From NCBI RefSeq assembly GCF_900199205.1, contig NZ_OBMJ01000003.1, forward strand, positions 124,001-188,000: DNA of 64,000 bases. Reading direction: 5' to 3'. The stretch comes from Streptomyces sp. 1331.2 (GTDB taxonomy: Bacteria > Actinomycetota > Actinomycetes > Streptomycetales > Streptomycetaceae). Shown one piece after another: positions 7,393 through 56,262 of this stretch; positions within the stretch are counted from its first letter, which is position 1; every line of letters starts with the position of its first letter. Under the pieces are notes generated by a model. It was not told the DNA's origin. It searched no databases and saw nothing but the letters and a program-made list of their open reading frames with translations. The position numbers and the translations under genes were made by a program.

Positions 7393-8598
7393 GCGCTCAC
7401 CGGGGACGGCCGTCAGCACACCGCGCGCGGGGAGTGCGACCAGGAGCGCGACCGCGACGAGCAGCGCGCCGACCCACAGCGGCCCGAGGTCGCCGGACCC
7501 GGTGCCGGTGCCGGTTCCGGTTCCGGTTCCGGTTCCGAGGGTGGTCGCGGCGATGAGGGGGCCGGCGACGGCGCCGAGGTTGAGGGCCGCCGTCGCGTAG
7601 GAGCCGGCCATGGTGACGGCCGGGGCCGCCTCGTACAGGACCCGCGAGATCAGCGTGCCGCCCAGCGCGAAGGACAGCGCGCCCTGGACGAACACCAGGA
7701 GGAGCAGCGCGAGCGGCTGGTCGGCGAGCACGGCCAGGGCCGGCCAGCCGAGGAACAGCAGCGGGCCGCCGGCGGCGAGGACCAGGCCGGGGCGCCGGTC
7801 GGACAGCCGTCCGGCGGCGGTGACGCCGACGAAGGACCCGGCGCCGAAGAGCACCAGGACGACGGGGACCCACGCCTCGCCCAGCCCGGCGGTGCCGGTG
7901 ACGACGGGGGCGAGGAAGGTGAAGCTGGCGAAGGTGGCCGCGTTCACCAGCGCGCCGAGCAGCATCACCAGGAGCAGCCGCGGGCGCCTGAGGTGCGCCA
8001 ACTCCGCCCGCAGGGGCGGCCGCCCGTCAGGCACGTTCCGCCGTGCGCCCGCCGGGGCCGCCGGGAGTCCGGTGAGGACGCCGACGGCCGCGGGCAGGCA
8101 GAGGGCGGCGACGGCCCAGAACGCGGCCCGCCAGCCGAGCGCCGTGCCCAGCACCGCTCCTGCAGGCACGCCGACGATGGTGGCCATCGTGGTGCCCGAG
8201 AGCAGCACGGCGAGCGCCCGTCCCTTCCGGTCGGCGGGGACCAGCGTGCCGGCGGCCGTCAGGGCGACGGCGAGGAAGCCGGCGTTCGCGAGCGCCGCGA
8301 CCACCCGGGTCGCGCACAGCACCGGGAAGTTCGGGGTGGCGGCGCCCACGGCATGGGCGGTGGCGAACACGAGGACGAATCCGAGCAGGCTCGACCGGGC
8401 GGGCCAGTGCCGGGCGAGCGCCGCCACCAGCGGGGCACCGACGACCATGCCGATCGCGAAGGCCGGGGTGAGCAGACCTGCGGTCGCGACGGTGACGCCG
8501 AGGTCCGGGGCGAGGTCCGGCAGCAGGCCGGCCAGCATGAACTCCGAGGTGCCCATGGCGAAGACCGCCAGGGCGAGCAGGTACAGCGGGAGAGGCAT
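7324..8598 (-). CDS. Cmx/CmlR-type MFS drug exporter
   Basis: A 424-aa 12-helix MFS antiporter. The N-terminus MPLPLYLLALAVFAMGTSEF with ..LLPDLAPDLGVTVATAGLL.. is characteristic of the Cmx/CmlR chloramphenicol exporters of actinomycetes and of the wider DHA1 arabinose-efflux group, so proton-driven drug export is expected; chloramphenicol itself is only a candidate. ATG 8598 gives the family start. A run of six Gly-Thr codon pairs at 7501-7536 sits between late helices, and the 3' end overlaps the convergent MFS gene by 69 bases. The 545-bp region upstream is otherwise free of genes. Confidence 0.85.
   Translation of the reverse strand: MPLPLYLLALAVFAMGTSEFMLAGLLPDLAPDLGVTVATAGLLTPAFAIGMVVGAPLVAALARHWPARSSLLGFVLVFATAHAVGAATPNFPVLCATRVVAALANAGFLAVALTAAGTLVPADRKGRALAVLLSGTTMATIVGVPAGAVLGTALGWRAAFWAVAALCLPAAVGVLTGLPAAPAGARRNVPDGRPPLRAELAHLRRPRLLLVMLLGALVNAATFASFTFLAPVVTGTAGLGEAWVPVVLVLFGAGSFVGVTAAGRLSDRRPGLVLAAGGPLLFLGWPALAVLADQPLALLLLVFVQGALSFALGGTLISRVLYEAAPAVTMAGSYATAALNLGAVAGPLIAATTLGTGTGTGTGTGTGSGDLGPLWVGALLVAVALLVALPARGVLTAVPGERSARTGRGVAPAVPPLGRGADGE
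7501..7536. repeat. Hexanucleotide repeat inside the exporter gene
   Basis: Six tandem 6-mers (ggtgcc x2, then ggttcc x4) encode alternating Gly and Thr on the reverse strand. Changes of whole units keep the frame and would only lengthen or shorten a periplasmic or cytoplasmic loop. Confidence 0.85.
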
Positions 8599-8890
8599 CG
8601 AGTGGCTCCGGGTTCCGGGGTTCCGAGGTGAGGAGAAGCACGAGGCGGTCATCTCGTCACCGCGGTCAGCACCCGGCGGTCGGCGCCCGGCAGTCAGCGC
8701 CCGAGGGCGAACCCGCCCGGCCGCGGAACGCGGCGGGACGGCAACAGGACTGTGGACTCAGCGGCTCAGGGGGCTGACGGCGTGACCGAAAGCCCCCACC
8801 CTGTCCGATTCCGGACTCGACATGCTCCGCACACTACCCGACCCGCATCCGCCCGGGCACCTGCTTTTCCGGGCCGGCCCGGCGTCCGGG

Positions 8891-8987
8891 CTCGGGATGG
8901 CTCGGGGCGGGCTCGGGGCGGGCTCGGGGCGGGCTCGGGACGGGCTCGGGGCGGGCTCGGGACGGGCTCGGGGCGGGCTCGGGGCGT
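8891..8987. repeat. G-rich 11-bp tandem repeat in an intergenic region
   Basis: About eight copies of ctcggggcggg (some with ctcgggacggg) run head to tail on the + strand. The repeat lies in the gene-free stretch 8599-9143 between the divergent exporter and the DUF1906 protein. Each unit has two G-runs of three or four, so the + strand could form G-quadruplexes. Nothing else recognisable lies in this stretch. Confidence 0.9.
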
Positions 8988-9143
8988 CGGGGATGTCCGG
9001 AACCGTCGTGGTAGTTGACGGATCGCCGGAGTGGGATGGCGGGCCGTTGTCGGTCGGGGTCGCGGGCGTGGATATCGTGGCCGCCGACGCCGCACGGCCG
9101 GCTACTCGGCGCGCGGCCTTTCGCCATGTCAGGAGAGAACTGG

Positions 9144-15665: not shown

Positions 15666-18095
15666 TTACGGGAGGGTCCAGCGCTGGTTGGCGCCGGCGT
15701 TGCAGTCCCAGATCTCCAGCGGGGTGCCGTCGGCGGTGGCGGCGGCGGGGTCGTCGAGGCAGCGGCCGGACTGGGCGCCCTTGAGGGTGCCGTCCGGTTG
15801 GGGCGTCCACTGCTGGTTGGTGCCGCCGTTGCAGTCCCACAGTTCGACCGGGGAACCGTTGACCGTGGCCTGGCCGGTCACGTCGAGGCACTTGCCGTTG
15901 TGGGTGAGGGTGCCGTTGGACCAGGTCCACACCTGCCCGGGGCTGCCGTCGCAGGCCCAGAGCTGGACGGCGGCGCCGCTGGTGTCGGCGGCGGGGCGGG
16001 CGCAGGTGCCGGGCAGGGCCGAGGCGACCGGGCCGGTGTGGGTGGTGGGGGTGCCGGGGGTGAGGGCGAAGTCGTCGAACTGGTCGGTCTGGTAGCCGGT
16101 GACGCCGAGGCCGGCCCGCCCGTTGGTGTAGCTCGCGTCGGTCGCGCTGCCCACGGTGGTGCCGTCGATGCTCGCGGTGAGGGTCTGGCCCTCCAGGGTG
16201 AACCGGACGGTGTGCCAGCTGCCGGTGCCCGGCGCGGCGGTGGTGCCGCTCGCCAGGGTGGTGAAGTTCCAGCTGGTGTCGCTCTTGTCGATGGACCAGG
16301 CGCCGGTGTCGCCGACCCGCAGGTGGTACGCGTTCAGGCCGTTGTTGTTGCGGCCCTGCTGGTTGACCCGGCCGAGGAGTTCGACCGTGCTCGACTGCTC
16401 GAAGAGGACGTCGGCGGTGACGGTGTAGTTGGACCAACTGCCGTCGCCCGCCATGGTGTACGGGGCGTTGTAGCGCTCGTCGGTCCAGCGGATCGGCGTG
16501 GTCGGGGCCATCTGGCGCAGGCAGGTGCCGGTGCGGCCGCCGCCGCAGGGGGCGGTCCGGAAGGCCCCGTTCATGTCGGTGAAGTACTTCGGCGAGGTGG
16601 TGGCGGCCGGGGTCTCGAAGCTGTCCGCGTAGGGGAGCGTCATCGGGGCGGCGGCCGGCGGGGTGGCGGTGCCCTTGCCCTGGCCGGTGGTGGTGGTCAC
16701 GGTGTAGACCCGGCCGGGCTGGAGGGTGAGGGCGTAGCGGCCGTTCGCCGGGGTGACGTCCTGCTGCCGGACGAACCAGTCGGCCGGGTTCGCGGAGCGC
16801 AGGTCGGTGGACCAGACGTGGACCTTGCCGGTGGACAGGCCGCCGGTGACGGTGAAGTTCGCGGTCTGGGCGGCGGTGGCGTCCACGGTTTCGAGGACGG
16901 TGCTGTAGTCGCGGCCGGTCGTGGTCGAGGTCGTGCTCTGCAGCGTGACGTAGCTGCCGTTGGCGCGGGCGCCGCCGAGGTAGCCGCTCGCCGCGTCGAT
17001 GTAGCGCCAGCCGGGCTTGGCGAACTGGGTGGTGTGCGCGGTGACCCAGGTCGTCCGGCCGATGCCGTAGTGGCCGGACCAGGGCTGGTTGGCGATCGAC
17101 ATGCCGTCGGTGGAGAAGAAGAGGTCGGGGTAGAGCGCGGCGATGACCGGCCAGTTGAGGAACGAGGTCATCTTCCCGTCGAGGTAGCCGCGGTTGATGC
17201 CGCGGGCCACGGCCGGGGCACCGCCGTCGGCGTCCTCGGAGCCGTTCTCGCTGGCCCACAGTGGTTTGCCGAGCGCCTGGGCGGTGGGGGTGCTGGGGCA
17301 GTTGGTGTAGGAGCCCAGGTACCCGCAGGGGTAGTGGACGCCGACGATGTCGACGGCGTTGCGGAACGCCGGGTCGGTGGCCATGGCGTCTGCCACGCTC
17401 CAGGTGTCGTCGGCGGCGACGACCTTGGTGGCGCCGTGTCCGCGGGCGACGAGGGTGCTCTTGAGGTTCTCGTACCAGGCCTTGTCGAAGCCGCGCTCGT
17501 TCCAGCCGCCGAGGTAGGAGATGTCGAGGTGGTGGCGGTCGGCGCAGCCCATCCAGTCCATCAGGTAGTCGACGGTGTCCTGGGACCAGAAGTGGCCGCC
17601 GTTGCCGGTGTTGCCGATCCAGCCGGGGGCGCCCCAGGACAGGCCGTAGAACCTGATGGCGGGGTTGCGGGCCTTGGCCTGCTCGGCCAGCCACCACTCG
17701 TAGCCCTGGTCGCAGTCGACGGTCCCGCGGGTGTGCTCGATGCTCGGCTCCGCGCCGTCGGTGGAGTTGGTGTCGCCGCCGATCTCCAGTTTCAGCACCT
17801 GCAGTGAGGCGCCGTAGCCGGGCTTGAACAGGTAGTCGAGCAACTGGCTGCGCTGGGGCTCGGGGTAGTCCGCCAGCAGGCGGGAGTTGCCGCCGCCGCC
17901 GGAGATCGCACCGACGCCGTCGAAGGTGAGTCCCGGCTTGGTGCCGTCGAGGGTGACGGAGGTCTGGACGGCGGCGGCCGCGGGCGGGGCGGCCTGGGCC
18001 GCGGGTGGTGCGGCCAGACCGCCCAGCGCGCCCGTGAGGGCGAGTGCGGCGCTCAGGGCGGTGCGCCTGATGGATGGGAGGAGTTGACGGCCCAT
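15666..18095 (-). CDS. Secreted GH59 galactosidase with ricin-type lectin domain
   Basis: An 809-aa exported glycosidase. After a signal peptide (about 1-45) comes a GH59 (galactocerebrosidase-like) TIM barrel: ..TFDGVGAISGGGGNSRLL.., ..GGWNERGFDK.. with the acid/base Glu of the NE motif, and ..LWASENGSED.. with the likely nucleophile Glu. Middle residues form jelly-roll domains typical of GH59. The C-terminal 130 residues are a ricin-B/CBM13 trefoil (..GKCLDVTGQATVNGSPVELWDCNGGTNQQW..). It should release galactose from beta-galactosides outside the cell. ATG 18095 gives the signal peptide. It is divergent from the sugar ABC genes, a likely regulon partner. Confidence 0.9.
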   Translation of the reverse strand: MGRQLLPSIRRTALSAALALTGALGGLAAPPAAQAAPPAAAAVQTSVTLDGTKPGLTFDGVGAISGGGGNSRLLADYPEPQRSQLLDYLFKPGYGASLQVLKLEIGGDTNSTDGAEPSIEHTRGTVDCDQGYEWWLAEQAKARNPAIRFYGLSWGAPGWIGNTGNGGHFWSQDTVDYLMDWMGCADRHHLDISYLGGWNERGFDKAWYENLKSTLVARGHGATKVVAADDTWSVADAMATDPAFRNAVDIVGVHYPCGYLGSYTNCPSTPTAQALGKPLWASENGSEDADGGAPAVARGINRGYLDGKMTSFLNWPVIAALYPDLFFSTDGMSIANQPWSGHYGIGRTTWVTAHTTQFAKPGWRYIDAASGYLGGARANGSYVTLQSTTSTTTGRDYSTVLETVDATAAQTANFTVTGGLSTGKVHVWSTDLRSANPADWFVRQQDVTPANGRYALTLQPGRVYTVTTTTGQGKGTATPPAAAPMTLPYADSFETPAATTSPKYFTDMNGAFRTAPCGGGRTGTCLRQMAPTTPIRWTDERYNAPYTMAGDGSWSNYTVTADVLFEQSSTVELLGRVNQQGRNNNGLNAYHLRVGDTGAWSIDKSDTSWNFTTLASGTTAAPGTGSWHTVRFTLEGQTLTASIDGTTVGSATDASYTNGRAGLGVTGYQTDQFDDFALTPGTPTTHTGPVASALPGTCARPAADTSGAAVQLWACDGSPGQVWTWSNGTLTHNGKCLDVTGQATVNGSPVELWDCNGGTNQQWTPQPDGTLKGAQSGRCLDDPAAATADGTPLEIWDCNAGANQRWTLP

Positions 18096-43475: not shown

Positions 43476-44792
43476 GTGACCGACAGCATCACGTTCGGCA
43501 GGTTCATCTCGCTGCGCCGCACGGAGAAGGGCTGGACGCAGCTGCGGCTGGCGACCGAGCTCAACCGCAGCGAGGCGTGGATGTCGCAGGTCGAGCGGGA
43601 CCTCCAGCAAGTCCAGGACGTGCCGCTGCTGCGACTGCTGGCCGACGCCCTGGACGTCGGGGTCGACACGCTGATGACCCTGCCGCAGCCCGCCGCGAAG
43701 AAGGCGAACAGATCACCGCGACGGCGCGTCAGCTCGGCTACGCTGACGACGACTTCCGGTGCCGAGGAGGACGATGTGCGACGCCGCCCGTTCCTGACCC
43801 TGGCGGCTGCCGCCCTCTTCGCTCCGGTGGCCGGACAGCAGGCTGCGCAGGCCGAGCCGGCGCCGCCGCTCTCCGGCCTGGAAGACCTGCTCCTCTACGG
43901 GGCAGGACGGATCCCCGCTCCCCGGCGGGAGCCGACTCGGGCGTCCGTCGCCGAGTCCGTCGTGGTCTCCCGTCGGGAGTTCAAGGCGGCCAAGTACGAC
44001 GTCCTCGCCCAGGCGCTGCCCGGCCGGATCGCTGCGGCCGATGTCGTCGGCACCGCGGAGGAGCGCGCCCGCACCGTCGCCCAGCTCTACAACATCGCGG
44101 TGCGCCTGTGCATCAAGATCGGCGACAACAACCTCGTGGCCGTCACCGCCGACCGCGCACTGACCGCCGCCCGCCTGGGTGGCGACCCGCTGATCACGGC
44201 CGAGGCGCAGCGCATGGTGTCCAGCGCCTGGCGCCGCCAGGGCAGCCTGGCCAGGGCAACGGACATCGTCGTCGTCGCGGCCGACGACCTGCTCGCCGAC
44301 ACCTCTGTCCCCGAAGCGTCCCGCCTGGCCACGCGCGGAGACCTCTACGCCACCGCCGCCTACACCGCGGCGAAGGCGGGCGACAGGGCGTACGCCCACT
44401 CCCTCATCACGGAGGCCGCTGACAGTGCTGCCGCTGCGGGCCGGTCCTCCGGCCTGGTGGACGGCATCCAGGGCGTCGGCCTTCACGAGGTCAGTGTGCA
44501 CTTCGAGCTCGGGGATGCCGGCCGGGCGATCGAGACGGCCCGCACGATCGACCCGGCCGCGCTGCCGACCGCCGAGCGGCAGGCCAGATTCTTCACCGAC
44601 GTGGCCCGTGCCTTCGACCAGTGGGGCAAGCCGGAGCAGTGCTACCGCGCCCTGCTGGCTGCCGAGGAAGCGGCCCCGCAAGAGCTGCGCAGGGGCGCGG
44701 TTCGTGACCTCGCAGCCGGCCTGCTGCGGCACGACCGGCGGCTGCCGGGTGTGCGCGACTTCGCCGCCCGCGCGGGCGTACAGATCGTTTAA
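43476..44792 (+). CDS. XRE-family regulator with TPR-like domain, next to the nucleotide operon
   Basis: A 438-aa protein: HTH_XRE (..GRFISLRRTEKGWTQLRLATELNRSEAWMSQVERDLQQV..), a linker with a Tat-like or hydrophobic stretch (RRRPFLTLAAAALFAPVAG), then TPR-like helices (..DNNLVAVTADRALTAARLGGDPLITAEAQRMVSSAWRRQGSLARAT..). GTG 43476. Just upstream is a palindrome cgctac g gtagcg (43426-43438). It precedes the thymidylate-synthase operon, separated by nested palindromes, and is the likely regulator of that operon (inference). Confidence 0.87.
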   Translation: MTDSITFGRFISLRRTEKGWTQLRLATELNRSEAWMSQVERDLQQVQDVPLLRLLADALDVGVDTLMTLPQPAAKKANRSPRRRVSSATLTTTSGAEEDDVRRRPFLTLAAAALFAPVAGQQAAQAEPAPPLSGLEDLLLYGAGRIPAPRREPTRASVAESVVVSRREFKAAKYDVLAQALPGRIAAADVVGTAEERARTVAQLYNIAVRLCIKIGDNNLVAVTADRALTAARLGGDPLITAEAQRMVSSAWRRQGSLARATDIVVVAADDLLADTSVPEASRLATRGDLYATAAYTAAKAGDRAYAHSLITEAADSAAAAGRSSGLVDGIQGVGLHEVSVHFELGDAGRAIETARTIDPAALPTAERQARFFTDVARAFDQWGKPEQCYRALLAAEEAAPQELRRGAVRDLAAGLLRHDRRLPGVRDFAARAGVQIV

Positions 44793-45132: not shown

Positions 45133-46155
45133 GTGATCGCACCCGTCGTCTTCCCCTCGTTCCAGCACGCCTACGTCGCCGTCCTGCGGTACGTCACCGA
45201 GACCTACGAGTTCGTCAACTCGGCTCGGGGTAACGACAGCCAGGAGATCATCGGTGCGAGCTTCCGGCTCGCCGATCCCCGCCAGCGGGCCCTGTACCTG
45301 ACGAGCCGACCGGTCAACCCGGTGTACCACTACGCGGAAGCGCTCTGGTACCTGGGCGGCATGCGGAACCTCGACCTGATCGGGCACTACGCGAACCGCC
45401 GCCGGGCCGACTCGCGCGACGGCGTCACCATCGAAGGTTCGTCCTACGGGGCCAGGATCTTCGCTCCCCGTCCAGACGGCGCGCCTTCCGCCTTCGACCA
45501 GGCGCTGGAATTGCTGCGGGCCGAGAAGGACAGCAAGCGCGCGTACATGCCGATCTTCGAGGCCCGCGACCTGGACGAGATCGGCCACCCCGACCTGCCC
45601 TGCCTGGTCGGCCTCCACCTGCTGGCCCGTGAGGGCTACCTGCACATGGTCACCTACATGCGCGCCAACGACGCCAATCGCGGCATGGTCTGCGACGTCT
45701 ACTCCTTCACCCTGATCCAGGAGTTCGCCGCCGCGCTCCTCGGACTGCGCCTGGGCTCCTACACCCACCACGTGGGCTCGATGCACGTCGGGCTCCGGGA
45801 CCTGGAGCGCGCGGGCAGGGTGCTGGACGAGACGGCGGCGAGCTACGCCACGGTGCCCTGCTTCGCGCCGCCGGTGATGCCCGCCGACTCCACGTGGAAG
45901 CACATCCGGACCGTCCTGGAGCACGAGGAGCTGCTGCGCGCCAACCGGGTCCAGTACACCCCCAGGGACGTCGCCGGACTGGACCTGCCGCGGTACTGGC
46001 AGCGCGTCCTGCTGCTCTTCGAGGCGCACCGGCAGGTGGTCAACTGCCCGGAAGTCCCGGTCGACCAGCGCGTGCTCGACGCGCTGGAGCCAGGCGCGCG
46101 CTGGCAGTTCGAGCGCCGCTGGCCGGCCCGCGTCGCAGCCGGGGAGAACACGTGA
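45133..46155 (+). CDS. Thymidylate-synthase homologue with cytosine-type Asp
   Basis: A 340-aa protein in exact register with ThyA: E69 (ThyA E58, in AEALWYLGG), catalytic C157 (C146), R177 and D180 (R166, D169), H218 (H207). ThyA N177, which selects uracil, is D188 here (GMVCD for GLPFN). Asp at this place is the known feature of dCMP hydroxymethylase and MilA-type CMP hydroxymethylases. ThyA Y209 is Gly220, so sugar recognition also differs. Expected reaction: folate-dependent methylation or hydroxymethylation of C5 of (d)CMP. GTG 45133 follows GGAG; GTG 45121 is in frame too. First gene of a coupled operon. Confidence 0.85.
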   Translation: MIAPVVFPSFQHAYVAVLRYVTETYEFVNSARGNDSQEIIGASFRLADPRQRALYLTSRPVNPVYHYAEALWYLGGMRNLDLIGHYANRRRADSRDGVTIEGSSYGARIFAPRPDGAPSAFDQALELLRAEKDSKRAYMPIFEARDLDEIGHPDLPCLVGLHLLAREGYLHMVTYMRANDANRGMVCDVYSFTLIQEFAAALLGLRLGSYTHHVGSMHVGLRDLERAGRVLDETAASYATVPCFAPPVMPADSTWKHIRTVLEHEELLRANRVQYTPRDVAGLDLPRYWQRVLLLFEAHRQVVNCPEVPVDQRVLDALEPGARWQFERRWPARVAAGENT

Positions 46156-46688
46156 TCCCGCAGCCCGATCAGCACAACCCGCTGCGGGGGGTGGACTGGG
46201 CCCGCTGGAGCGTGGTGCTGCTCAAGCCGGACTGCGTGCGCCGGGGCGTGAGTGACCAGGTGCTGGCCCGGCTGGAGCCCGCCGCGACGATCGTCCACCG
46301 GCAGCAGGTCCTCGTGGAGGACTGGCAGATCTTCGTCCACTACTGGGACCTGCTGGTCACGCGGGACCGCTTCGAGGTCGACGTTCCCGGCTGCCTGCGC
46401 ACCACCTACGTGCGACAGCCGGTGGAAGTGGCGCTCGCCTACGGCGAACCCGGCACCCCCGAGCGGCTGCGCAGCCTGCTCGGGCACTTCGACCCCCACC
46501 AGGCCGAGCCGGGCACCATCCGCGCCGACCTGGGCACCGACAGCCTCACGGCCGCCCGGGCGCAGCGCCGCCTCGTGGAGAACCTGATCCACACCTCCGA
46601 CGACCGGCGCGCCGCGCGCCGGGACTTCGGGACGTGGTTCGGCGCCGGCCACCACCAGTTCTTGGAGATCAAGGAGGATCACCGATGA
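46152..46688 (+). CDS. Nucleoside-diphosphate-kinase-like protein
   Basis: A 178-aa protein with NDK features: ..WSVVLLKPDCVRRGVSDQVL.. (LLKPD, K25), ..GTIRADLGTDS.. and ..NLIHTSDDRRAARRDFGTWF.. with the phospho-acceptor His147 in N-x-x-H-x-S-D. The middle is divergent, with an insertion compared with classical 140-aa Ndk. It probably makes a nucleoside triphosphate, a step that fits the synthase upstream. Overlaps both neighbours by GTGA and ATGA. Confidence 0.8.
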   Translation: MIPQPDQHNPLRGVDWARWSVVLLKPDCVRRGVSDQVLARLEPAATIVHRQQVLVEDWQIFVHYWDLLVTRDRFEVDVPGCLRTTYVRQPVEVALAYGEPGTPERLRSLLGHFDPHQAEPGTIRADLGTDSLTAARAQRRLVENLIHTSDDRRAARRDFGTWFGAGHHQFLEIKEDHR

Positions 46689-47860
46689 CGACCGCCGCCA
46701 GGAGGGCCCGGCGCCCGCTGCCCCTGCTGAACGTCGAGCAGATCGCTTCGCTCAAGCCGGAGCTCGCCGAGGTCATCGAGTACCGCAAGAGCGGATTGTC
46801 GCTCAACCACATCGTGGGCTGCCCGCTGGACTGCGGGTACTGCGTGCGTCACCTGTTCGACAACTTCGAGCTCAAGACCCCTCGGCGGCTGATGAGCGAC
46901 GAGGCCGCGGTGGAGTTGCTGACCGGGCACCGGTACTTCCGGCCCCACCGCACGCCGATCCAGATCTTCAACCGGGCGACAGACCCCATGCTCCCGGTCG
47001 TCAAGCCGCACACGTTCCGGACGCTGCGGCTGCTGGACGAGCAGGGCCTGACCAACCACGTTCTGATCATCACCAGGTGGCGCGTCGACCCCGAGGACTG
47101 CGAGGTCCTGAACGGATTCGAGAACATCCGGCTGACGGTGCTGGTCACGCACTCCGGTATCGACCACCCGGGCATCGAACCGGTGGACTCGGCCATCGCC
47201 GCCGCCAGCCTCCAGACGCTCCACCAGCACGCCGAGCGCTACCGCACGGTGCTGTACTGGCGGCCGATCGTGCCGGGTCTCAACGACTCCGACGAGCACA
47301 TCCAGCGGGCCTTGGAGCTGTCGAGGCACGCCGACGCGACGGTGTTCACCGGGCTGTTCTTCCGCAAGGAGATCGCCGCGTACTACGCGGACCACGGCCT
47401 GCCGATGCCGTACGAGGACGTCGCCCGCCGCAAGATCATGCCGGAGGAGTCCGAGCAGCGCATCCTCGACGCCTTCCGCCGGCCCGACGACGGGGCCGAG
47501 CCGTACGGGCCGCTGTTCCGGAAGACCAGCTGCGGCGTCGCGTACGCCCACAAGGTGGCCGACTACAACGGGCACTACGGCATCCGGGAGTTGTGCGACA
47601 TCTGCCCGGCGGCGCAGCTGGGCCTGTGCCGCGATGCCTGGAAGGCCCCCAGTCTGGAAGAGGCCACCGCGGCCGCCCGTGCTCTCGGGGCGACCGGCGA
47701 CGTTGAGATCACCGAACGCGCCATCATCGTCGAGGGCTTGAACGAGCCGCCGCGCTACTACCTCCAGCACGGCTTCGGCTACCAGGTCCACGACCGTGAC
47801 AAGCCGCACCGCTACCGCCGCCACGGCCGGGCCGAAATCGGCTGGGCCGACAACAAGTAG
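46685..47860 (+). CDS. Radical SAM protein, spore-photoproduct-lyase-like
   Basis: A 391-aa enzyme. C46-x3-C50-x2-C53 (GCPLDCGYC) binds the 4Fe-4S cluster that cleaves S-adenosylmethionine. The barrel (..IFNRATDPMLPVVKPHTFRTLRLLDEQGLTNHVLIITR..) resembles SplB-like radical SAM proteins. A C-terminal CDICPAAQLGLC group may hold a second cluster. The substrate may be the modified nucleotide or base made by the synthase upstream (inference). Coupled to the NDK-like gene by ATGA and 9 bp before the exonuclease gene. Confidence 0.87.
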   Translation: MTTAARRARRPLPLLNVEQIASLKPELAEVIEYRKSGLSLNHIVGCPLDCGYCVRHLFDNFELKTPRRLMSDEAAVELLTGHRYFRPHRTPIQIFNRATDPMLPVVKPHTFRTLRLLDEQGLTNHVLIITRWRVDPEDCEVLNGFENIRLTVLVTHSGIDHPGIEPVDSAIAAASLQTLHQHAERYRTVLYWRPIVPGLNDSDEHIQRALELSRHADATVFTGLFFRKEIAAYYADHGLPMPYEDVARRKIMPEESEQRILDAFRRPDDGAEPYGPLFRKTSCGVAYAHKVADYNGHYGIRELCDICPAAQLGLCRDAWKAPSLEEATAAARALGATGDVEITERAIIVEGLNEPPRYYLQHGFGYQVHDRDKPHRYRRHGRAEIGWADNK

Positions 47861-47869
47861 GGAACGCTG

Positions 47870-48484
47870 ATGGACTACGGCGCCTGGCCCCGTCTCTTCG
47901 TCGTAGACGTGGAGGGCAACGGAGGAACGCCGCCGGACCTGGTGGAGGTCGCAGCGGTCCCTGTGGTCAACGGGATCCCGGTGCCGTCGTCCACACGCTC
48001 CACGCTGCTGCGCCCGCCGAACCCCATCACGCCGTTCGCACGGCGGGTGCACGGCATCCGTAACCAGGACGTCGCCACCGCGCCGACCTGGGAGCAGATC
48101 GGCCCCCAGGTGCACGCCGACCTGGAAGGCGTGTGGATCGCCGCGCACAACGCCCACGTGGACTACGGCGTGCTGTTGCGGCACATGCCCGACTGGAAGC
48201 CGGCCGGGGTGCTGGACACCCTGCGGCTCGCCCGCGCCACCTACCCGAAGGCCCGCCGGTACAGCCTCGACGCGCTGATCGAGCTGACCGCCATCGACCT
48301 GGAGTCCATCCCCGGCCAGCGCCACCGGGCCGCCTACGACGCCCACGCAACCGCCCTGCTGCTGCTCTCTCTCGCCGAGCACTACGACACGTGGGACACG
48401 CTGCTCGCCGCAGCCGTCCCACCCGGGATGCCCGGCGCCCCCCTTCCCGCTCCGCCCAAGTCCGAGGAACAGACACTGTGGTGA
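47870..48484 (+). CDS. DnaQ-like DEDDh 3'-5' exonuclease
   Basis: A 204-aa protein with the DEDDh set: D13 and E15 (VVDVEGNG), D of HNAHVDYGVL, and H-x4-D of HRAAYDAHAT. It should trim DNA, RNA or oligonucleotides from the 3' end, or degrade nucleotides. In this operon it could release or clear modified nucleotides. ATG 47870; overlaps the kinase gene by 7 bases. Confidence 0.85.
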   Translation: MDYGAWPRLFVVDVEGNGGTPPDLVEVAAVPVVNGIPVPSSTRSTLLRPPNPITPFARRVHGIRNQDVATAPTWEQIGPQVHADLEGVWIAAHNAHVDYGVLLRHMPDWKPAGVLDTLRLARATYPKARRYSLDALIELTAIDLESIPGQRHRAAYDAHATALLLLSLAEHYDTWDTLLAAAVPPGMPGAPLPAPPKSEEQTLW

Positions 48485-49080
48485 CACCGCTTCGCCTCTA
48501 CATCGCCGGAACGCACTCGACCGGCAAGACCACCATCGCCAGGCGCATCGAGATGGAACTGCGCGCCACCGGCCTCAAGGTCGCCCGCACCGGCGGCTTC
48601 GCCAAGCGGGCCGCCGAGCTCGGCCTCCCGAAGATGACGCGCCACACCGCCGCCTCCAGCACGTGGATCATCAACGCCACGGCCAACGCCGCCCTGGAGG
48701 CGGAGCTCACCGCGGACGTCGTGATCGTGGACCGCACTCCCTTCGACGCCCTCGCCTACTTCCTGGCGGCGGTCGAGCACCGGGACGAGCGCCCCGACCC
48801 CGAAGCGCTGTCCCGTCTGACGGCCCTGGTCCAGCTGGCCAGCCCCCGGCCGGTGGTCTTCCTGGCCACCGTGCTGGACCCGGCTCTGCCGCTGGCCGAA
48901 CACCCGGGCAAGGACCCCGACTGGGCTGACGCCGCGTTCCGCGAGGCCGTGGACCGGCAGCTCCACCGGGCCTTGAGGGGCTACTCGGTGCCGCACATCA
49001 CGGTGCCCAGCGACGAGCACGCGGAGACCGTCGAGATGGCCGTCGAGGCGATCGCTGCCGCGTGGGACGTGGCGGCGTGA
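48478..49080 (+). CDS. NadR-like P-loop kinase / AAA_28 protein
   Basis: A 200-aa P-loop protein: Walker A GTHSTGKTT near the N-terminus, ..DVVIVDRTPFDALAYFLAAVEH.. (Walker B and the DRxxxD-type motif of nucleoside/nucleotide kinases). NadR-type and AAA_28 proteins phosphorylate small nucleosides or nucleotides. Here a monophosphate-to-diphosphate or nucleoside kinase step would connect the synthase and the NDK-like protein (inference). GTG 48478 has GAGGA 9 bases upstream. Confidence 0.8.
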   Translation: MVTPLRLYIAGTHSTGKTTIARRIEMELRATGLKVARTGGFAKRAAELGLPKMTRHTAASSTWIINATANAALEAELTADVVIVDRTPFDALAYFLAAVEHRDERPDPEALSRLTALVQLASPRPVVFLATVLDPALPLAEHPGKDPDWADAAFREAVDRQLHRALRGYSVPHITVPSDEHAETVEMAVEAIAAAWDVAA

Positions 49081-49811
49081 TCACGATCGCGGGTAAGACA
49101 GTCCCGCGCCTGGGCCTGGGCACCCTGCGCCTGACCGGCCCCGGCACCTGGGGCGAGCCGGCCGACATGGTCGGTGCCGCCGCACTGCTGCGCGAGGCCG
49201 TTCACGACCTCGGCATCCTGCACGTCGACACCGCCGACGCCTACGGCCCGCACACCGTCGAGGAACTGATCCGCCGCGCGCTGCACCCCTACCCCGAGCA
49301 GCTGCTGCTGGCCACGAAGGTCGGCATGGTGCGGCCCGCCCCGAACGTCTGGCGCCCGCTGGGCCGGCCCGAGTACCTGCGCGCCGCCGTGGAGGCGTCC
49401 CTGCGCCGCCTGGGCACCGAGCGGATCGATCTGTGCTACCTGCACCGGGTGGACCCCGCGGTCCCGCTGGCCGATCAGGTCGGCGAGCTGGAGGAGCTGC
49501 GGGCCGCAGGTAAGGTCGCCGCCATCGGCCTGTCCAAGGTGACCCCTGAGCAGATCCGCGAGGCCGGCAAGCTAGTGGCGGTCGCCGCCGTGCAGAACTG
49601 CCTGAACGCCGCCGAACCGGACGATCCGGCGTTGGCGTACTGCCTGGACAACGGCATCCCGTACGTGCCGTACCGGCCGCTGAACGCCGGCCTGCTGCCC
49701 GATCCGGCGGAGGCCCTGCGGTGGCTGCTGGACCTCGGCCCGTTGGTGGCGCCGATCCCCGGCACCGCGGACCCTGCCCACCTGCGCGCGCTCTTCGCGC
49801 CCGCGACCTGA
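49077..49811 (+). CDS. Aldo/keto reductase, short form
   Basis: A 244-aa NADPH-dependent reductase with the AKR tetrad: D and Y of HVDTADAYGPHT, K of LLATKVGM, H of CYLHRVD. At 244 residues it is shorter than usual (280-330), with a shortened C-terminal loop, so substrate choice may be altered. Coupled to the kinase gene by GTGA. In the operon it might reduce a sugar or base aldehyde, for example a formyl or keto intermediate (inference). Confidence 0.85.
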   Translation: MITIAGKTVPRLGLGTLRLTGPGTWGEPADMVGAAALLREAVHDLGILHVDTADAYGPHTVEELIRRALHPYPEQLLLATKVGMVRPAPNVWRPLGRPEYLRAAVEASLRRLGTERIDLCYLHRVDPAVPLADQVGELEELRAAGKVAAIGLSKVTPEQIREAGKLVAVAAVQNCLNAAEPDDPALAYCLDNGIPYVPYRPLNAGLLPDPAEALRWLLDLGPLVAPIPGTADPAHLRALFAPAT

Positions 49812-49825
49812 GCAGCGGGTACTCG

Positions 49826-50125
49826 ATGCCGAAGCCCTGGAAGCCCCGCGAGGAGTTCGTCAAGACGCTGCCCCGAACCCTGCACGGCTGCGGCGTGCTG
49901 CTCTTCGACCCCGACGGGAAGCTGCTGCTCGTGCACGACTCCTACAGCGCGGGCCGGGCTGCCAAGGGCTGGCTGCAGCGCTGGTGGGCGCCGGGCGGTC
50001 TCCTCGAAGACGGCGAAGCCCCGAGGAGGCGGCGCGGCGGGAGGTCCTGGAGGAGACCCGGCCTGCGGCTCGACTGCCGGCTCTGCCCGGTCGGCGTGGA
50101 CTCCTGCCGCCGGCCGAGGGCGCCG
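49826..50125 (+). pseudogene. Broken Nudix hydrolase gene, truncated
   Basis: From ATG 49826, 14 bp after the reductase gene, the frame gives ..LHGCGVLLFDPDGKLLLVHDSYSAGRAAKGWLQRWWAPGGLLEDGEAP, the start of a Nudix domain. A one-base loss near 50020 moves the Nudix box (EEAARREVLEET) to another frame; a one-base gain near 50059 returns to the first frame (GLRLDCRLCPVGVDS), so the box is destroyed by two compensating changes. The homology stops near 50105, where antisense GlgC-like sequence begins. Last gene of the nucleotide operon; probably a house-cleaning nucleotide hydrolase before decay. Confidence 0.75.
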
Positions 50126-52149: not shown

Positions 52150-53733
52150 TCAGCCGAGCTTGCTGTTCTTCCAGTTCCAGCTCTTGACGGGGTCGGTGCT
52201 GCTGTCCCAGGCCAACTGCGGAGAGTTGAGGCCGGTGCCGGTGCTGGTGAGGGTCCACAGGCCGGTGCGGCTGGCGTCCCCGGTCTTGCCGTAGTCGTAG
52301 GCGATGGCGATGTCGGCCTTGCCGTCACCGTTGAAATCACCGGCGACCAGCTTGCTGGCGTTCCAGTTCCAGCTCTTCACCGCATCGGTGGCGCTGTCCC
52401 AGACCTGCTTGGGGCCGGCGAACCCGGCGCCGGTGCTGGTGAAGGTCCACAGACCGGTGCGGCTGATGTCCCCGGTCTTGCCGTAGTCGTAGAGGACGCC
52501 GATGTCGGCCTTGCCGTCACCGTTGAAGTCGCCTGCGGTCACCTTGCTGGCGTTCCAGTTCCAGCTCTTGACGGGGTCGGTGCTGCTGTCCCAGACCTGC
52601 TTGGCGCTGGAGAAGCCGGCGCCGGTGCTGGTGAAGGTCCACAGGCCGGTGCGGCTGGCGTCCCCGGTCTTGCCGTAGTCGTAGGCGATGGCGATGTCGG
52701 TCCTGCCGTCACCGTTGAAGTCACCGCTGACGGGCCTGCTGGCGGCCCAGTTCCAGCTCTTGACGGGGTCGGTGCTGCTGTCCCAGACCTGCTTGGCGCT
52801 GGAGAAGCCGGCGCCGGTGCTGGTGAAGGTCCAGAGTCCGGTGCGGCTGGCGTCTCCGCTCTTGCCGTAGTCGTAGAGGACACCGATGTCGGCCTTGCCG
52901 TCACCGTTGAAGTCACCGACAACGGGCTTGTTGTTGGCCCAAGTCCAGCTGCTGACGGGGTCGGTGGAGCTGTCCCAGGCCGGCTGCGGGCCGGTGAAGC
53001 CGCTGCCCGTGCTGGTGAAGGTGTAGAGCCTGGTGCGGTTACGGCCGTCGTCGGTACGGCCCAGGTCGTAGAGCACCCCGATGTCGGCCTTGCCGTCACC
53101 GTTGAAGTCACCGACCGTCACCTTGCTGGACGCCCAGTTCCAGCTGTCCGAACCGCTGTCCCACACCCGTTGCGGGGAGGTAAAACCGCTCCCCTTGCTG
53201 GTGAACGTCCACAGACCCGAGTGGTTGCGCTCCCCGTCCTTGCCGTAGTCGTACAGCACCGCGACATCGTCCCGGCCGTCACCGTCGAAATCACCCTTGA
53301 TCCGGGTGGCCGGGTTCTGCTCCGGGTCGGTGGGGGTGGGGGTGGGGGTGGGAACGTCGGGGAAGGGCGGTTCGCTGTCGTCGCCCAGGCCCGTGCCCTG
53401 CCAGCAGTTCGGCCAGGCATTCACGCCCTGGGCCGCGAGCACCTTCTCCGCGATCCTGATCTGCTGTTCCTTGGTGGCCTGGTAGGCGAACGGCGCGTAA
53501 TCCGTCCCGCCGAACCCCTCCCAGGTGCTCGGAATGATCTGCAGGCCACCGCCCAGGTTCGTTCCGCTGTGGTAGCTCCAGTCGCCCTCGCTCTCGCACT
53601 TCGCCACCTTGTCCCAGGTGGCGACCGAGGCAGCGTGGGCCGGGGCGGAAGGCGTCAGGGAGAGGCCGGCTGCGGCCAGTGCCACGGCCGCGGTGGTGAC
53701 GAGCGGGTGTTTCCTGATGTTCGGTAAACGCAT
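52150..53733 (-). CDS. Secreted Rpf/transglycosylase-type muralytic head on an FG-GAP propeller
   Basis: A 527-aa exported protein. A signal peptide (about 1-35) is followed by a resuscitation-promoting-factor/lysozyme domain (39-112): ..WDKVAKCESEGDWSYHS..GGGLQIIPSTWEGFGG..ATKEQQIRIAEKVLAAQG... E47 is the catalytic Glu of the CESGG motif, here CESEG. A Pro/Thr linker leads to six FG-GAP/VCBS repeats, each about 62 aa with GDFNGDGKAD, a Ca2+-binding DxDxDG type, forming a beta-propeller. It should cleave peptidoglycan glycan strands. It is 33 bp after the DUF1906 gene in the same direction and so probably co-transcribed with it. Confidence 0.88.
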   Translation of the reverse strand: MRLPNIRKHPLVTTAAVALAAAGLSLTPSAPAHAASVATWDKVAKCESEGDWSYHSGTNLGGGLQIIPSTWEGFGGTDYAPFAYQATKEQQIRIAEKVLAAQGVNAWPNCWQGTGLGDDSEPPFPDVPTPTPTPTDPEQNPATRIKGDFDGDGRDDVAVLYDYGKDGERNHSGLWTFTSKGSGFTSPQRVWDSGSDSWNWASSKVTVGDFNGDGKADIGVLYDLGRTDDGRNRTRLYTFTSTGSGFTGPQPAWDSSTDPVSSWTWANNKPVVGDFNGDGKADIGVLYDYGKSGDASRTGLWTFTSTGAGFSSAKQVWDSSTDPVKSWNWAASRPVSGDFNGDGRTDIAIAYDYGKTGDASRTGLWTFTSTGAGFSSAKQVWDSSTDPVKSWNWNASKVTAGDFNGDGKADIGVLYDYGKTGDISRTGLWTFTSTGAGFAGPKQVWDSATDAVKSWNWNASKLVAGDFNGDGKADIAIAYDYGKTGDASRTGLWTLTSTGTGLNSPQLAWDSSTDPVKSWNWKNSKLG

Positions 53734-53766
53734 GTTCTGAAGGTCTCCATCCGTCGACGGGCGCGC

Positions 53767-56262
53767 TCAGCCGACCTTGCTGTTCTTCCAGTTCCAGCTC
53801 TTGACGGCGTCGTTGGCGCTGTCCCAGACCTGCTGCGGGGAGTTGAAGCCGGTACCGCTGCTGCTGAGGGTCCACAGGCCGGTGCGGCTGATGTCCCCGG
53901 TCCGGCCGTAGTCGTAGAGGACGCCGATGTCGGCCTTGCCGTCGCCGTTGAAGTCGCCGGCGACCAGCTTGCTGGCGTTCCAGTTCCAGCTCTTCACCGC
54001 ATCGGTGGCGCTGTCCCAGGCCAGCTTGGGGCCGGCGAATCCGGCGCCGGTGCTGGTGAGGGTCCAGAGACCGGTGCGGCTGGCGTCCCCGGTCTTGCCG
54101 TAGTCGTAGGCGATGGCGATGTCGGCCTTGCCGTCGCCGTTGAAGTCACCGCTGACGGGCTTGCTGGCGGCCCAGTTCCAGCTCTTGACGGGGTCGGTGC
54201 TGCTGTCCCAGACCTGCTTGGCGCTGGAGAAGCCAGCGCCGGTGCTGGTGAAGGTCCACAGGCCGGTGCGGCTGATGTCCCCGGTCTTGCCGTAGTCGTA
54301 GAGGACGCCGATGTCGGCCTTGCCGTCGCCGTTGAAGTCACCGCTGACGGGCTTGCCGGCGGCCCAGTTCCAGCTCTTCACCGCATCGGTGGCACTGTCC
54401 CAGGCCAGCTTGGGGCCGGCGAACCCGGTGCCCGTGCTGGTGAAGGTCCAGACAGCGGTGCGGTTGGCGGTGTCGGCGGCCTGGCCGTAGTCGTAGACCA
54501 CGCCGATGTCGGCCTTGCCGTCACCGTTGAAGTCGCCGACCACGGGCTTGCTGGTCGCCCAGTTCCAGCTGCTGACGGCGTCGGTGGAGCTGTCCCAGGC
54601 CGGCTGCGGGCCGGTGAAGCCGCTGCCCGTGCTGGTGAAGGTGTAGAGCCTGGTGCGGTTGCGACCGTCGTCGGTACGACCCAGGTCGTAGAGCACCCCG
54701 ATGTCGGCCTTGCCGTCACCGTTGAAATCGCCGACCGTCACCTTGCTGGACGCCCAGTTCCAGCTGTCCGAACCGCTGTCCCACACCTGCCGCGGAGCGT
54801 TGAAACCGGCCCCCTTGCTGGTGAACGTCCACAGACCCGAGTGGTTGCGCTCACCGTCCTTGCCGTAGTCGTACAGCACCGCGACGTCATCCCGACCGTC
54901 ACCGTCGAAATCACCCTTGACCCGGGACGAGTCCTCCTGCGCGGCGACGACGGGCTGCGTACCGGCCGGGCCGACGTCGATGTAGTTGCGGTCGATGTTG
55001 AGCGTCACGCCGCCGTAGGTCTCGTCCACCTCGCCGCGGTACTGGTGGACGCGCTGCCGGTTGGACCAGAAGCCGGGCCCGGGGAGTCCCATGGACGAGT
55101 CCGAGACGTCGGCCTGGTAGTTCCAGTTGGCGGACCAGACCACGTCCGGGCCGGCGTAGTCGGAATCGCCGGCCACCGAGGCGAGGTCCTGCACACCGCT
55201 CCGGACCCCGGCGTAGACACCGGACCGGTAGCCGCGCTCGCGCACCCGGCTGCTCCAGCCCGACAGGTAGTCCAGGACCCGGTCCCGGTAGGACCGGTCG
55301 TCGTAGTGCTCCATGTCGTTGTAGATGACCGTGCCCGGCCCGAACCCCAGGTCGGCGGCCTTGGCGACGGCGGTGTCCGCGGACTCCCGGCCCTGGTTGA
55401 CGGCGTCGGTCGGTGAGATGTCGTAGGCCTGACGGTCCACGAAGATCGGCAGCGGGTACCAGCCGTTCGAGGTCTGTTCGCGCACCCAGTCGGGGGTGAG
55501 CTCGGGCTGCTTCGAACAACCCAGGTGGCGCCCGCCGATGTAGATGCCCACGGACCGGTACGGCGACGCCTTCCAGGCGTTCATCGTGCTGGGCGACGGG
55601 GCCGTGCAGGCGTCGAAACCCGGTCCGGTGTAGCCGGTGTCGGCCACGACGGCGGGCTGCGCCGTGAGCGCGCCGAACGCCTTGGGCACGGGAGCCGGAG
55701 CGGGCGCAGGAGCGGGAGCCGGTGCCGGAGCGGCGGGCTTGGCAGCCGTGGCGTCGATCCGGGCGTTGCCGAGGATGGCGGCGACGGTCGCGTTGGAGGA
55801 CGCACCGTACGCGGCGGTCACCAGCACCCCGGCGCCTTCGACGGCCACCCGCGACTCCTGATCGGAGCCCACCAGCAGCGTGCGCGGCATCGCCGCGCCC
55901 TGCGGGACGCGCAGGACGTCGGAGGCCTGCCGGCCGACGGTCCCGGGGATCGGTTCCAGGAGCAGGGCGTCCGTCTTGTCGACCACGAGGTGGGGCGGGC
56001 AGGCCTGTTCGGCACCGGGGTGCCCCAGGTAGACGGTGTGCCGGTCGAAGCGGACACAGGTGTCCGGGGCCTTTTCCAGGTCGACGACCGTCCATGTGGA
56101 GGGCACGTCGAGGGTGAGGCCGTGGTAGGTCACGGCCGTGGTGGCGTCCCGGTGCGGCGTCGCGGGCGCGGCTTGGGCCTGCTGGGCGAGCCCTGGTGCG
56201 ACCAGGGCGAGCAGGGCGGTCGAGACGGCGAGGGCTCGGCCGCGTTTCTTGGGCAGTTGCAT
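53767..56262 (-). CDS. Secreted DUF1906 (GH25-like) head on an FG-GAP propeller
   Basis: An 831-aa exported protein. Signal peptide (about 1-32), then the ..TCVRFDRHTVYLGHPG..CPP.. domain, an Ala/Pro linker, and a DUF1906 TIM-barrel domain (..GFDACTAPSPSTMNAWK.., ..YRSVGIYIGG.., ..VIYNDMEHY.., ..VVWSANWNYQADV..), followed by six FG-GAP repeats. The first two thirds are paralogous to the 9144 gene, which carries a tectonin-like propeller instead. ATG 56262 gives the signal peptide. A terminator separates it from the NlpC-type gene upstream, while the Rpf gene follows after 33 bp. Confidence 0.87.
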   Translation of the reverse strand: MQLPKKRGRALAVSTALLALVAPGLAQQAQAAPATPHRDATTAVTYHGLTLDVPSTWTVVDLEKAPDTCVRFDRHTVYLGHPGAEQACPPHLVVDKTDALLLEPIPGTVGRQASDVLRVPQGAAMPRTLLVGSDQESRVAVEGAGVLVTAAYGASSNATVAAILGNARIDATAAKPAAPAPAPAPAPAPAPVPKAFGALTAQPAVVADTGYTGPGFDACTAPSPSTMNAWKASPYRSVGIYIGGRHLGCSKQPELTPDWVREQTSNGWYPLPIFVDRQAYDISPTDAVNQGRESADTAVAKAADLGFGPGTVIYNDMEHYDDRSYRDRVLDYLSGWSSRVRERGYRSGVYAGVRSGVQDLASVAGDSDYAGPDVVWSANWNYQADVSDSSMGLPGPGFWSNRQRVHQYRGEVDETYGGVTLNIDRNYIDVGPAGTQPVVAAQEDSSRVKGDFDGDGRDDVAVLYDYGKDGERNHSGLWTFTSKGAGFNAPRQVWDSGSDSWNWASSKVTVGDFNGDGKADIGVLYDLGRTDDGRNRTRLYTFTSTGSGFTGPQPAWDSSTDAVSSWNWATSKPVVGDFNGDGKADIGVVYDYGQAADTANRTAVWTFTSTGTGFAGPKLAWDSATDAVKSWNWAAGKPVSGDFNGDGKADIGVLYDYGKTGDISRTGLWTFTSTGAGFSSAKQVWDSSTDPVKSWNWAASKPVSGDFNGDGKADIAIAYDYGKTGDASRTGLWTLTSTGAGFAGPKLAWDSATDAVKSWNWNASKLVAGDFNGDGKADIGVLYDYGRTGDISRTGLWTLSSSGTGFNSPQQVWDSANDAVKSWNWKNSKVG

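What the first reader, a model, noticed from the sequence alone, without database searches (positions are those of the whole stretch)
45133..50125. Coupled operon for a modified pyrimidine nucleotide, headed by a cytosine-type thymidylate-synthase homologue
Seen: synthase, NDK-like, radical SAM, DEDDh exonuclease, NadR-like kinase, aldo/keto reductase and Nudix genes in a row, joined by overlaps or gaps under 15 bp. The synthase keeps ThyA residues E58, C146, R166, D169 and H207 in register but has Asp188 at the place of Asn177 and Gly at Tyr209. Known: Asp at this place marks dCMP and CMP hydroxymethylases (T4 phage, mildiomycin MilA). Inference: the operon makes and phosphorylates a C5-modified cytosine nucleotide, which the radical SAM and reductase modify further, while exonuclease and Nudix may protect the host. 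It could serve a nucleoside natural product, DNA modification or antiviral defence. I know of no description of this gene set.
Basis: partly seen in the sequence, partly recalled or inferred. Interest (0 to 1): 0.88.

Follow-up and report, generated by a model that had tools for sequence, protein, structure and literature searches.

The report
Mobile nucleotide-modifying operon, possibly antiviral
A conserved, mobile set of bacterial genes appears to build an unusual cytidine-type nucleotide, and its core three genes also turn up among virus-defence genes and amid phage genes in unrelated bacteria, so it may be an undescribed way of poisoning viruses.

Summary
In detail: seven genes in a row, joined by overlaps or gaps of at most 14 bp; the seventh (Nudix) is frameshifted. 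The synthase is a near-full-length relative of MilA, the CMP 5-hydroxymethylase (E 1.8e-75), and keeps MilA's ribose-preference residues (Lys, Ala) and the Asp. MilA's Tyr218, which touches the 2'-OH, is Gly here.

The operon is a unit: 23 of 28 synthase loci read in Streptomycetaceae genomes keep its order and strand. The other five look bacimethrin-like.

New: the middle trio (radical SAM, DEDDh exonuclease, thymidylate-kinase-fold kinase) exists without the synthase on alphaproteobacterial plasmids, in most loci beside named defence genes (Gabija, CBASS, Shedu, Thoeris, Hachiman, dGTPase), and once between phage head genes. Control stretches of the same plasmids gave few, weaker matches.

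Best reading: a mobile, probably antiviral, module that makes a modified nucleotide. It works like viperin plus its kinase, but its radical SAM family matches no viperin model and has four extra invariant cysteines. Streptomycetaceae add a hydroxymethyl-CMP synthase and an NDK. Against: Streptomycetaceae copies show little defence context, and no activity is shown. Nucleoside natural-product biosynthesis is the main rival.

The parts
45133..46155 (+). TS: MilA-type pyrimidine nucleotide hydroxymethylase homologue (GTG start)
   Evidence: PDB best match MilA 5jnh/5b6d, E 1.8e-75, residues 6-334; Pfam PF00303; residue table
46152..46688 (+). NDK-like nucleoside diphosphate kinase with conserved NLxHTSD; doubled in several relatives
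   Evidence: PF00334 E 1e-15; conservation; tandem copies
46685..47860 (+). Radical SAM enzyme, CX3CX2C plus four further invariant Cys (283, 304, 307, 315)
   Evidence: fold model
47870..48484 (+). DEDDh 3'-5' exonuclease
   Evidence: PF00929 E 6.7e-18; conserved DxE, D and H-D motifs (motif names recalled)
48481..49080 (+). P-loop kinase with thymidylate-kinase-like fold (GTHSTGKTT, DR..DALAY)
   Evidence: AlphaFold model pLDDT 93.2; 49 of the 50 listed Foldseek PDB rows are thymidylate kinases, the other a deoxyadenosine kinase; phrog_2107
49077..49811 (+). Aldo/keto reductase, matched in 16 of 23 operons
   Evidence: PF00248 E 1.5e-48
49826..50125 (+). Nudix gene, frameshifted within the Nudix box (remnant); 171 aa long in two relatives
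43476..44792 (+). Helix-turn-helix regulator upstream; belonging to the unit is only inferred
   Evidence: HTH_31

Best explanation
The operon is a Streptomycetaceae version of a mobile nucleotide-modifying module whose core is a radical SAM enzyme, a DEDDh exonuclease and a thymidylate-kinase-fold kinase; most likely it is an antiviral (or anti-plasmid) defence module. Proposed working, all steps inferred except the homologies: the synthase turns CMP, perhaps a sugar-modified CMP, into its 5-hydroxymethyl form. The kinase and NDK raise it to the triphosphate. The radical SAM enzyme makes the decisive change on the nucleotide. The product poisons a viral polymerase. The exonuclease removes it from the host's own nucleic acid ends, and the reductase, Nudix or (in alphaproteobacteria) HD phosphohydrolase trims by-products or pools. 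This is the logic of viperin plus CMPK2 (recalled), with a radical SAM family that matches no viperin model.
For: The operon is a unit in 23 of 28 loci, with order and strand kept. The TS is a near-full-length MilA relative with MilA's Lys133, Ala176 and Asp equivalents. The kinase has a thymidylate kinase fold. The rSAM-exonuclease-kinase trio without TS was found in 9 of 9 alphaproteobacterial plasmid loci read, of 16 listed. Flanking proteins of 7 of these loci (77) match 204 PADLOC families at 1e-10 (25 listed), including GajA 4.6e-242, GajB, CBASS cyclase, E1-E2 and effector, dGTPase, SduA, ThsB and LmuB; 77 control proteins from other stretches of the same 7 plasmids match 7 families, best 2.3e-38. 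A HamB-type helicase adjoins the Mesorhizobium trio. In L092 the trio lies between head-protease/major-head genes and minor-head/portal/terminase genes of a phage-like contig, the virion genes running on the opposite strand. In 6 of 9 alphaproteobacterial loci an HD protein follows; the two tested match dGTPase weakly.
Against: Flanks of the Streptomycetaceae operons show little defence context: 77 proteins, 14 PADLOC families. No activity or phage protection is shown. The family count of 204 is inflated, since one protein alone hit 51 models, and no per-protein or per-locus count was returned; two of the seven loci (Labrenzia, Gluconobacter) have no named defence system in their annotation beyond an N-6 DNA methylase, toxin-antitoxin genes or candidate families. 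The rSAM is not closer to viperin than to other rSAM folds and matches no viperin model. No phage record of 50,697 holds the rSAM. Remote rSAM relatives sit in natural-product-like nucleoside clusters. The Nostoc copy lacks the exonuclease; no kinase was found in L094 or L095.
Confidence: 0.48

Rival explanations
1. A small biosynthetic cluster for a secreted or intracellular nucleoside natural product built on 5-hydroxymethyl-CMP, as in mildiomycin and bacimethrin pathways; the exonuclease and Nudix give self-protection.
For: TS relationship to MilA. Genes annotated as DUF6415 'natural product biosynthesis' lie upstream in two plasmid copies. Remote rSAM relatives lie beside MurA-like enolpyruvyltransferase and aldolase genes, recalling NikO/PolA plus PolH chemistry on UMP, with the exonuclease-kinase pair following in one of them. 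Little defence context in Streptomycetaceae.
Against: No relative of the nucleoside-deoxyribosyltransferase-type (N-glycosidase-like) family in the 23 operon loci; it is present in 5 of 5 other TS loci, within two genes of the TS in four (one member tested by Pfam). No transporter-like family recurs in more than 4 loci, though two recurring families gave no Pfam match. The trio also lives beside defence genes and in a phage-like contig without the TS.
Confidence: 0.27
2. The operon modifies or repairs nucleic acid itself: hydroxymethylated nucleotides are built into RNA or DNA, or the rSAM acts on a damaged or modified base, with the exonuclease clearing failed products.
For: Exonuclease and nucleotide enzymes together. 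The rSAM's weak profile matches include rSAM_mob_pairB and Rv2578c-type enzymes; spore photoproduct lyase is among many rows of similar Z.
Against: TS residues predict CMP rather than dCMP; no polymerase, DNA-binding or glycosyltransferase gene is in the set; occurrence is patchy and often plasmid-borne.
Confidence: 0.12
3. A chance or loosely linked set of housekeeping-type nucleotide genes.
For: Each family is common; AKR, Nudix and the kinase are missing in some copies.
Against: Order and strand are kept in 23 of 23, six genes are under purifying selection, and the trio is kept on alphaproteobacterial plasmids at 55-59% rSAM identity.
Confidence: 0.03

Closest known systems
MilA, CMP 5-hydroxymethylase of mildiomycin biosynthesis (and the related enzymes of bacimethrin-like clusters)
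   Same: Near-full-length homology, catalytic Cys, Lys133 and Ala176 equivalents, Asp at the base-recognition place
   Different: Tyr218 equivalent is Gly here and Gly, Asn, Cys or Ala in 33 of 33 operon copies, Tyr in the 5 bacimethrin-like loci; no N-glycosidase-type partner
Viperin / prokaryotic viperin (SAND) with CMPK2-type kinase (recalled)
   Same: Logic only: a radical SAM enzyme beside a pyrimidine nucleotide kinase, in virus defence
   Different: No PADLOC viperin model match, four extra invariant Cys, and an extra exonuclease; substrate unknown
PolH/NikJ radical SAM enzymes with PolA/NikO enolpyruvyltransferase (octosyl acid)
   Same: Remote rSAM relatives (27% identity for the one compared) lie beside MurA-like genes on two Streptomyces plasmids
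   Different: No enolpyruvyltransferase in the operon; PolH itself was not compared (no sequence at hand)
dGTPase and other nucleotide-depleting defence systems
   Same: In six of nine alphaproteobacterial loci an HD protein follows the kinase; the two tested match dGTPase weakly
   Different: No HD gene in the operon; the rest looks synthetic rather than degradative

Membership tests
MilA-type CMP 5-hydroxymethylase | Near-full-length homology including the C-terminal helical domain | tested here: met
   Residues 6-334 aligned to MilA 5-328, E 1.8e-75
MilA-type CMP 5-hydroxymethylase | Lys133 and Ala176 (ribose preference) and Asp for cytosine | tested here: met
   Lys135, Ala178, Asp188. Of 33 operon copies: Lys in 32 (the region is missing in L047), Ala in 31 and Gly in 2 (L094, L095), Asp in 33; meaning from PMC5175136
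MilA-type CMP 5-hydroxymethylase | Tyr218 contact to the 2'-OH of CMP | tested here: not met
   Gly220; hence called MilA-like, not filed as MilA
MilA-type CMP 5-hydroxymethylase | CMP to hmCMP activity | not testable with these tools
   needs enzyme assay
Thymidylate synthase (ThyA equivalog) | Score over NCBIfam equivalog cut-off | tested here: not met
   best 40.8 bits against cut-off 174.55
Mildiomycin/bacimethrin-type nucleoside cluster | Nucleoside N-glycosidase (MilB/BcmB-like) beside the synthase | tested here: not met
   The family is found only in L042-L046 of the 32 loci clustered, in none of the 23 operon loci
Viperin / SAND | Match to (prokaryotic) viperin models | tested here: not met
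   No PADLOC family for the rSAM at E up to 0.1; that PADLOC holds viperin models is recalled
Viperin / SAND | Viperin fold closer than other rSAM folds | tested here: inconclusive
   Viperin Z 9.3 amid other rSAM proteins at 8.6-11.6; model pLDDT only 70.8
Radical SAM superfamily | CX3CX2C cluster motif | tested here: met
   C46, C50, C53 in 19 of 19 close relatives and 3 of 3 remote ones
Described anti-phage systems (PADLOC 2.0.0) | Match of the operon proteins to system-specific models | tested here: not met
   Of seven proteins only the exonuclease matches, to generic DEDDh and candidate PDC-S48 models
Anti-phage defence system | Enriched beside defence genes or at phage cargo sites | tested here: met
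   Met for the alphaproteobacterial trio; weak for the Streptomycetaceae operons
Anti-phage defence system | Protection against phage | not testable with these tools
   needs plaque assays

The most novel reading that the evidence does not exclude
A mobile immune system, spread over Actinomycetota, Alphaproteobacteria and a cyanobacterium, makes an antiviral cytidine-type nucleotide with a radical SAM family distinct from viperin and carries its own exonuclease to edit the poison out of host nucleic acid. The Streptomycetaceae form first (or afterwards) adds a 5-hydroxymethyl group with a MilA-like enzyme whose opened sugar pocket (Tyr218 lost in 33 of 33 operon copies) accepts a sugar-modified CMP.
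Probability: 0.33. Interest if true: 0.93.

Novelty: categorically new. Interest (0 to 1): 0.8.

Why it matters
If the reading is right, bacteria have a second way, apart from viperin, to make antiviral nucleotide analogues with radical chemistry, joined to an editing exonuclease. That would make the question of how hosts survive their own chain-terminating nucleotides directly testable, and would offer a new source of modified cytidine triphosphates. If it is instead a nucleoside pathway, it is one that my searches did not find described, with an unusual MilA relative.

Tried and rejected
Ordinary thymidylate synthase: rejected (cut-offs; Asp188, Ala178). A plain mildiomycin- or bacimethrin-like cluster: rejected for the operon, since no N-glycosidase-type gene was found; such clusters exist elsewhere (L042-L046; Priestia plasmid L106). 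Viperin homology: no model match; in the structure comparison the viperin rows had no lead, which does not exclude kinship. A phage origin of the rSAM: no match in 50,697 phage records, yet 9 IMG/VR contigs; of four whose flanks I looked at (L092-L095, ten proteins in all), L092 has phage head genes, L095 tail-like and L094 endolysin-like matches, and L093's one protein only a family of unknown function. Spread in the phylum: 1 of 396 Actinomycetota genomes for TS (E 1e-40) and 1 of 396 for rSAM (E 1e-50), the own genome only, so the set is rare outside Streptomycetaceae, though a Nocardia plasmid holds one. Alphaproteobacterial whole genomes could not be surveyed, because the tool needs a genome handle as centre. 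Similar pairwise distances among five proteins (r 0.70-0.90) are also expected from shared strain history and are not counted as evidence of function. The rSAM tree puts TS-bearing copies in two places; one gain with losses or two gains are both possible, and long branches are present. Papers: nine searches in an open-access library gave no description of this gene set in titles and abstract starts or in the passages read; subscription papers and preprints are not held.
Full report
1. What is there. Seven ORFs on the + strand between 45133 and about 50125 encode a thymidylate-synthase-family protein (TS), an NDK, a radical SAM protein (rSAM), a DEDDh exonuclease (EXO), a P-loop kinase (KIN), an aldo/keto reductase (AKR) and a Nudix protein. 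Junctions are 4-bp overlaps or gaps of 9 and 14 bp. The Nudix gene is frameshifted in its Nudix box; 171-aa copies stand in L056 and L057, shorter ones in L054 and L055. The window lies on a 355,601-bp contig of an 8.4-Mb genome in three contigs. The genus is Kitasatospora, or the unit that contains it, judged from named relatives such as L018 and L021.

2. The synthase. Its best solved relatives are the MilA structures (E 1.8e-75, nearly full length), far ahead of thymidylate synthases (3.6e-10 and weaker). In MilA, Ala176 and Lys133 give the preference for CMP over dCMP, and the double change A176S/K133R turns it to dCMP (PMC5175136, parts 1 and 2 of 5 read). The window protein has Lys135 and Ala178 there, and Asp188 at the base-recognition place. 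So the prediction is a CMP-type hydroxymethylase. One feature departs: MilA's Tyr218, which touches the 2'-OH, is Gly220. In 33 of 33 operon copies (not all independent: L087 equals L061 in the rSAM tree) it is Gly, Asn, Cys or Ala, whereas it is Tyr in the five bacimethrin-like loci L042-L046 and in four loci of another type (L048-L051). A sugar pocket opened in this way suggests, as inference only, a sugar-modified substrate.

3. The operon is a unit. TS matches at E 1e-40 or better were found in 27 of 394 Streptomycetaceae genomes, in 3 of 17 genera; 28 of the 29 places were read. In 23 of 28 the operon follows: NDK matched in 22, rSAM in 23, EXO in 23, KIN in 21, AKR in 16, Nudix in 5 of 23, always in the window's order and on one strand. 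Some copies look broken or incomplete by their tblastn pieces (L047, L055, L058, L064, L067, L069). The other five (L042-L046) carry a nucleoside-deoxyribosyltransferase-type gene (5 of 5; one member confirmed by Pfam) and, in four, a gene that by eye is an HMP-kinase type, as in bacimethrin pathways. Six genes are under purifying selection (dN/dS 0.24-0.43 against two relatives and 0.27-0.59 against a third). Recurring families around the operon include a HATPase_c_2 protein, a protein with only a weak TPR match, a GNAT and further Nudix proteins, and two families without a Pfam match; no transporter-like family is in more than 4 loci.

4. The core is the trio rSAM-EXO-KIN. A plasmid search with the rSAM found 40 records; with the Sinorhizobium copy, 34 records, of which 24 are at 49% identity or more: 16 alphaproteobacterial, 6 Streptomyces, 1 Nocardia and 1 Nostoc. 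All nine alphaproteobacterial loci read have rSAM, EXO and KIN in tandem, with no TS or NDK match in the stretch. An HD-domain gene follows in six of nine, an AKR in one. The Nocardia copy has rSAM-EXO-KIN-AKR, its rSAM with one in-frame stop; the Nostoc copy has rSAM and KIN, no EXO. Three of the six Streptomyces plasmid copies were read: all have TS-NDK-rSAM-EXO-KIN; the AKR is whole in two and in displaced pieces in L085. The HD protein weakly matches dGTPase (4.5e-6 and 1.5e-8, two tested).

5. Defence context. From seven of the nine loci (near-copies left out) 77 flanking proteins were scanned against PADLOC at 1e-10: 204 families (25 listed), among them GajA 4.6e-242, E1-E2 1.7e-230, GajB 1.8e-225, CBASS cyclase 3.2e-147, dGTPase 1.2e-146, SduA 1.5e-128, LmuB 4.6e-127 and ThsB 5.4e-114. 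A HamB-type helicase lies beside the Mesorhizobium trio (7.5e-45). By annotation or these matches, named defence genes stand in five of the seven loci (Agrobacterium, Sinorhizobium meliloti, S. chiapasense, Rhizobium, Mesorhizobium); Labrenzia shows an N-6 DNA methylase beside conjugation genes, and Gluconobacter toxin-antitoxin and candidate-family genes. Seventy-seven proteins from one stretch of each of the same seven plasmids, placed by me elsewhere, gave seven families, best 2.3e-38 (mad3), with weak DrmD and SduA matches; one control stretch holds a VapC toxin gene. The family count is not a protein count, since one protein gave 51 matches. In L092, an IMG/VR contig, the trio stands on the + strand between head protease/major head genes and minor head, portal and terminase genes on the - strand, a usual kind of place for cargo genes (recalled). 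L094 and L095, which carry TS-NDK-rSAM-EXO with no KIN match, have a protein with endolysin-like and tail-like matches respectively within about 3 kb. Against this, 77 flanking proteins of 21 Streptomycetaceae operons gave only 14 families, with single restriction-type matches.

6. Parts and likely roles. KIN: AlphaFold model with pLDDT 93.2; 49 of the 50 listed Foldseek rows are thymidylate kinases and one is a deoxyadenosine kinase. rSAM: C46, C50, C53 and four more Cys (283, 304, 307, 315) are invariant in 19 of 19 close relatives, which suggests a second metal site (inferred). The model is poor (pLDDT 70.8) and fits many rSAM folds at similar Z, viperin and spore photoproduct lyase among them. 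EXO, NDK and AKR keep their catalytic motifs (motif names recalled). A remote rSAM relative (27% identity over 323 residues) and a second one stand beside a MurA-type enolpyruvyltransferase and an aldolase on two Streptomyces plasmids, in one followed by EXO and KIN. PolA/NikO plus PolH make octosyl acid phosphate from UMP in this way (PMC5365060, passages). Another EXO-KIN pair follows a dioxygenase, a glycosyltransferase and a sugar-nucleotide dehydrogenase. A further remote relative lies among dCTP and cytidine deaminases. The rSAM relatives and the EXO-KIN pair therefore keep company with nucleotide- or sugar-modifying genes of several kinds.

7. Mechanism. Shown: the gene set, its conservation, the homologies, and the contexts. 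Inferred: CMP becomes 5-hydroxymethyl-CMP, KIN and NDK make the triphosphate, the rSAM modifies the nucleotide, the product harms viral polymerases, and EXO edits host ends. The nearest known logic is viperin with CMPK2 (recalled), but membership of viperin failed the model test. The natural-product reading keeps about a quarter of the weight because the Streptomycetaceae copies lack defence neighbours and the remote relatives look biosynthetic.

8. Literature. Nine searches in an open-access library found no account of this set. PMC10853773 (passages) deals with other systems; hits other than the three papers named here were seen as listings only. Work in subscription journals or preprints could have been missed.

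Noticed in passing
L048 (G000:C3:263500-283000), match at G000:C3:273083-273703 -: The same contig carries a second TS-family gene with dCMP-type residues (Arg, Ser, Tyr) in a different cluster (by eye: carbamoyltransferase-like, epimerase-like, glycosyltransferase-like, rSAM and Nudix genes), seen in four genomes (L048-L051).
   Followed up: partly
L104:2313-6591, L107:3733-7230: MurA-like enolpyruvyltransferase, aldolase and a remote rSAM relative together on Streptomyces plasmids, in L104 followed by the exonuclease-kinase pair; a possible octosyl-acid-type pathway.
   Followed up: partly
L105:2320-6585: Exonuclease-kinase pair after a TauD-type dioxygenase, a glycosyltransferase and a nucleotide sugar dehydrogenase, with no rSAM annotated.
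   Followed up: no
L086 (pFRL6) 4339-10687: Remote rSAM amid two dCTP deaminases, a cytidine deaminase, a methyltransferase, a UTP-glucose-1-phosphate uridylyltransferase and a glycosyltransferase.
   Followed up: no
G141:C1:16305-17297 and 10130258-10131250: The TS gene stands near both ends of a 10,147,553-bp contig, in opposite orientation, as expected for terminal inverted repeats.
   Followed up: no
L040, L041, L047, L071, L076, L083, L088-L091: The NDK is present twice in tandem, annotated in L076 and L083 as one long protein.
   Followed up: no
L106:5527-9075: Priestia megaterium plasmid with a MilA-like TS between a nucleoside deoxyribosyltransferase and a methyltransferase, a bacimethrin-like set.
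   Followed up: no
window 15666-18095 -: Glycosyl hydrolase family 59 (galactocerebrosidase-type) with a ricin-type lectin domain.
   Followed up: no
window 52150-56262 -: Two neighbouring proteins with many similar DFDGDGRDDVAVLYDYG-type repeats, by eye FG-GAP-like.
   Followed up: no
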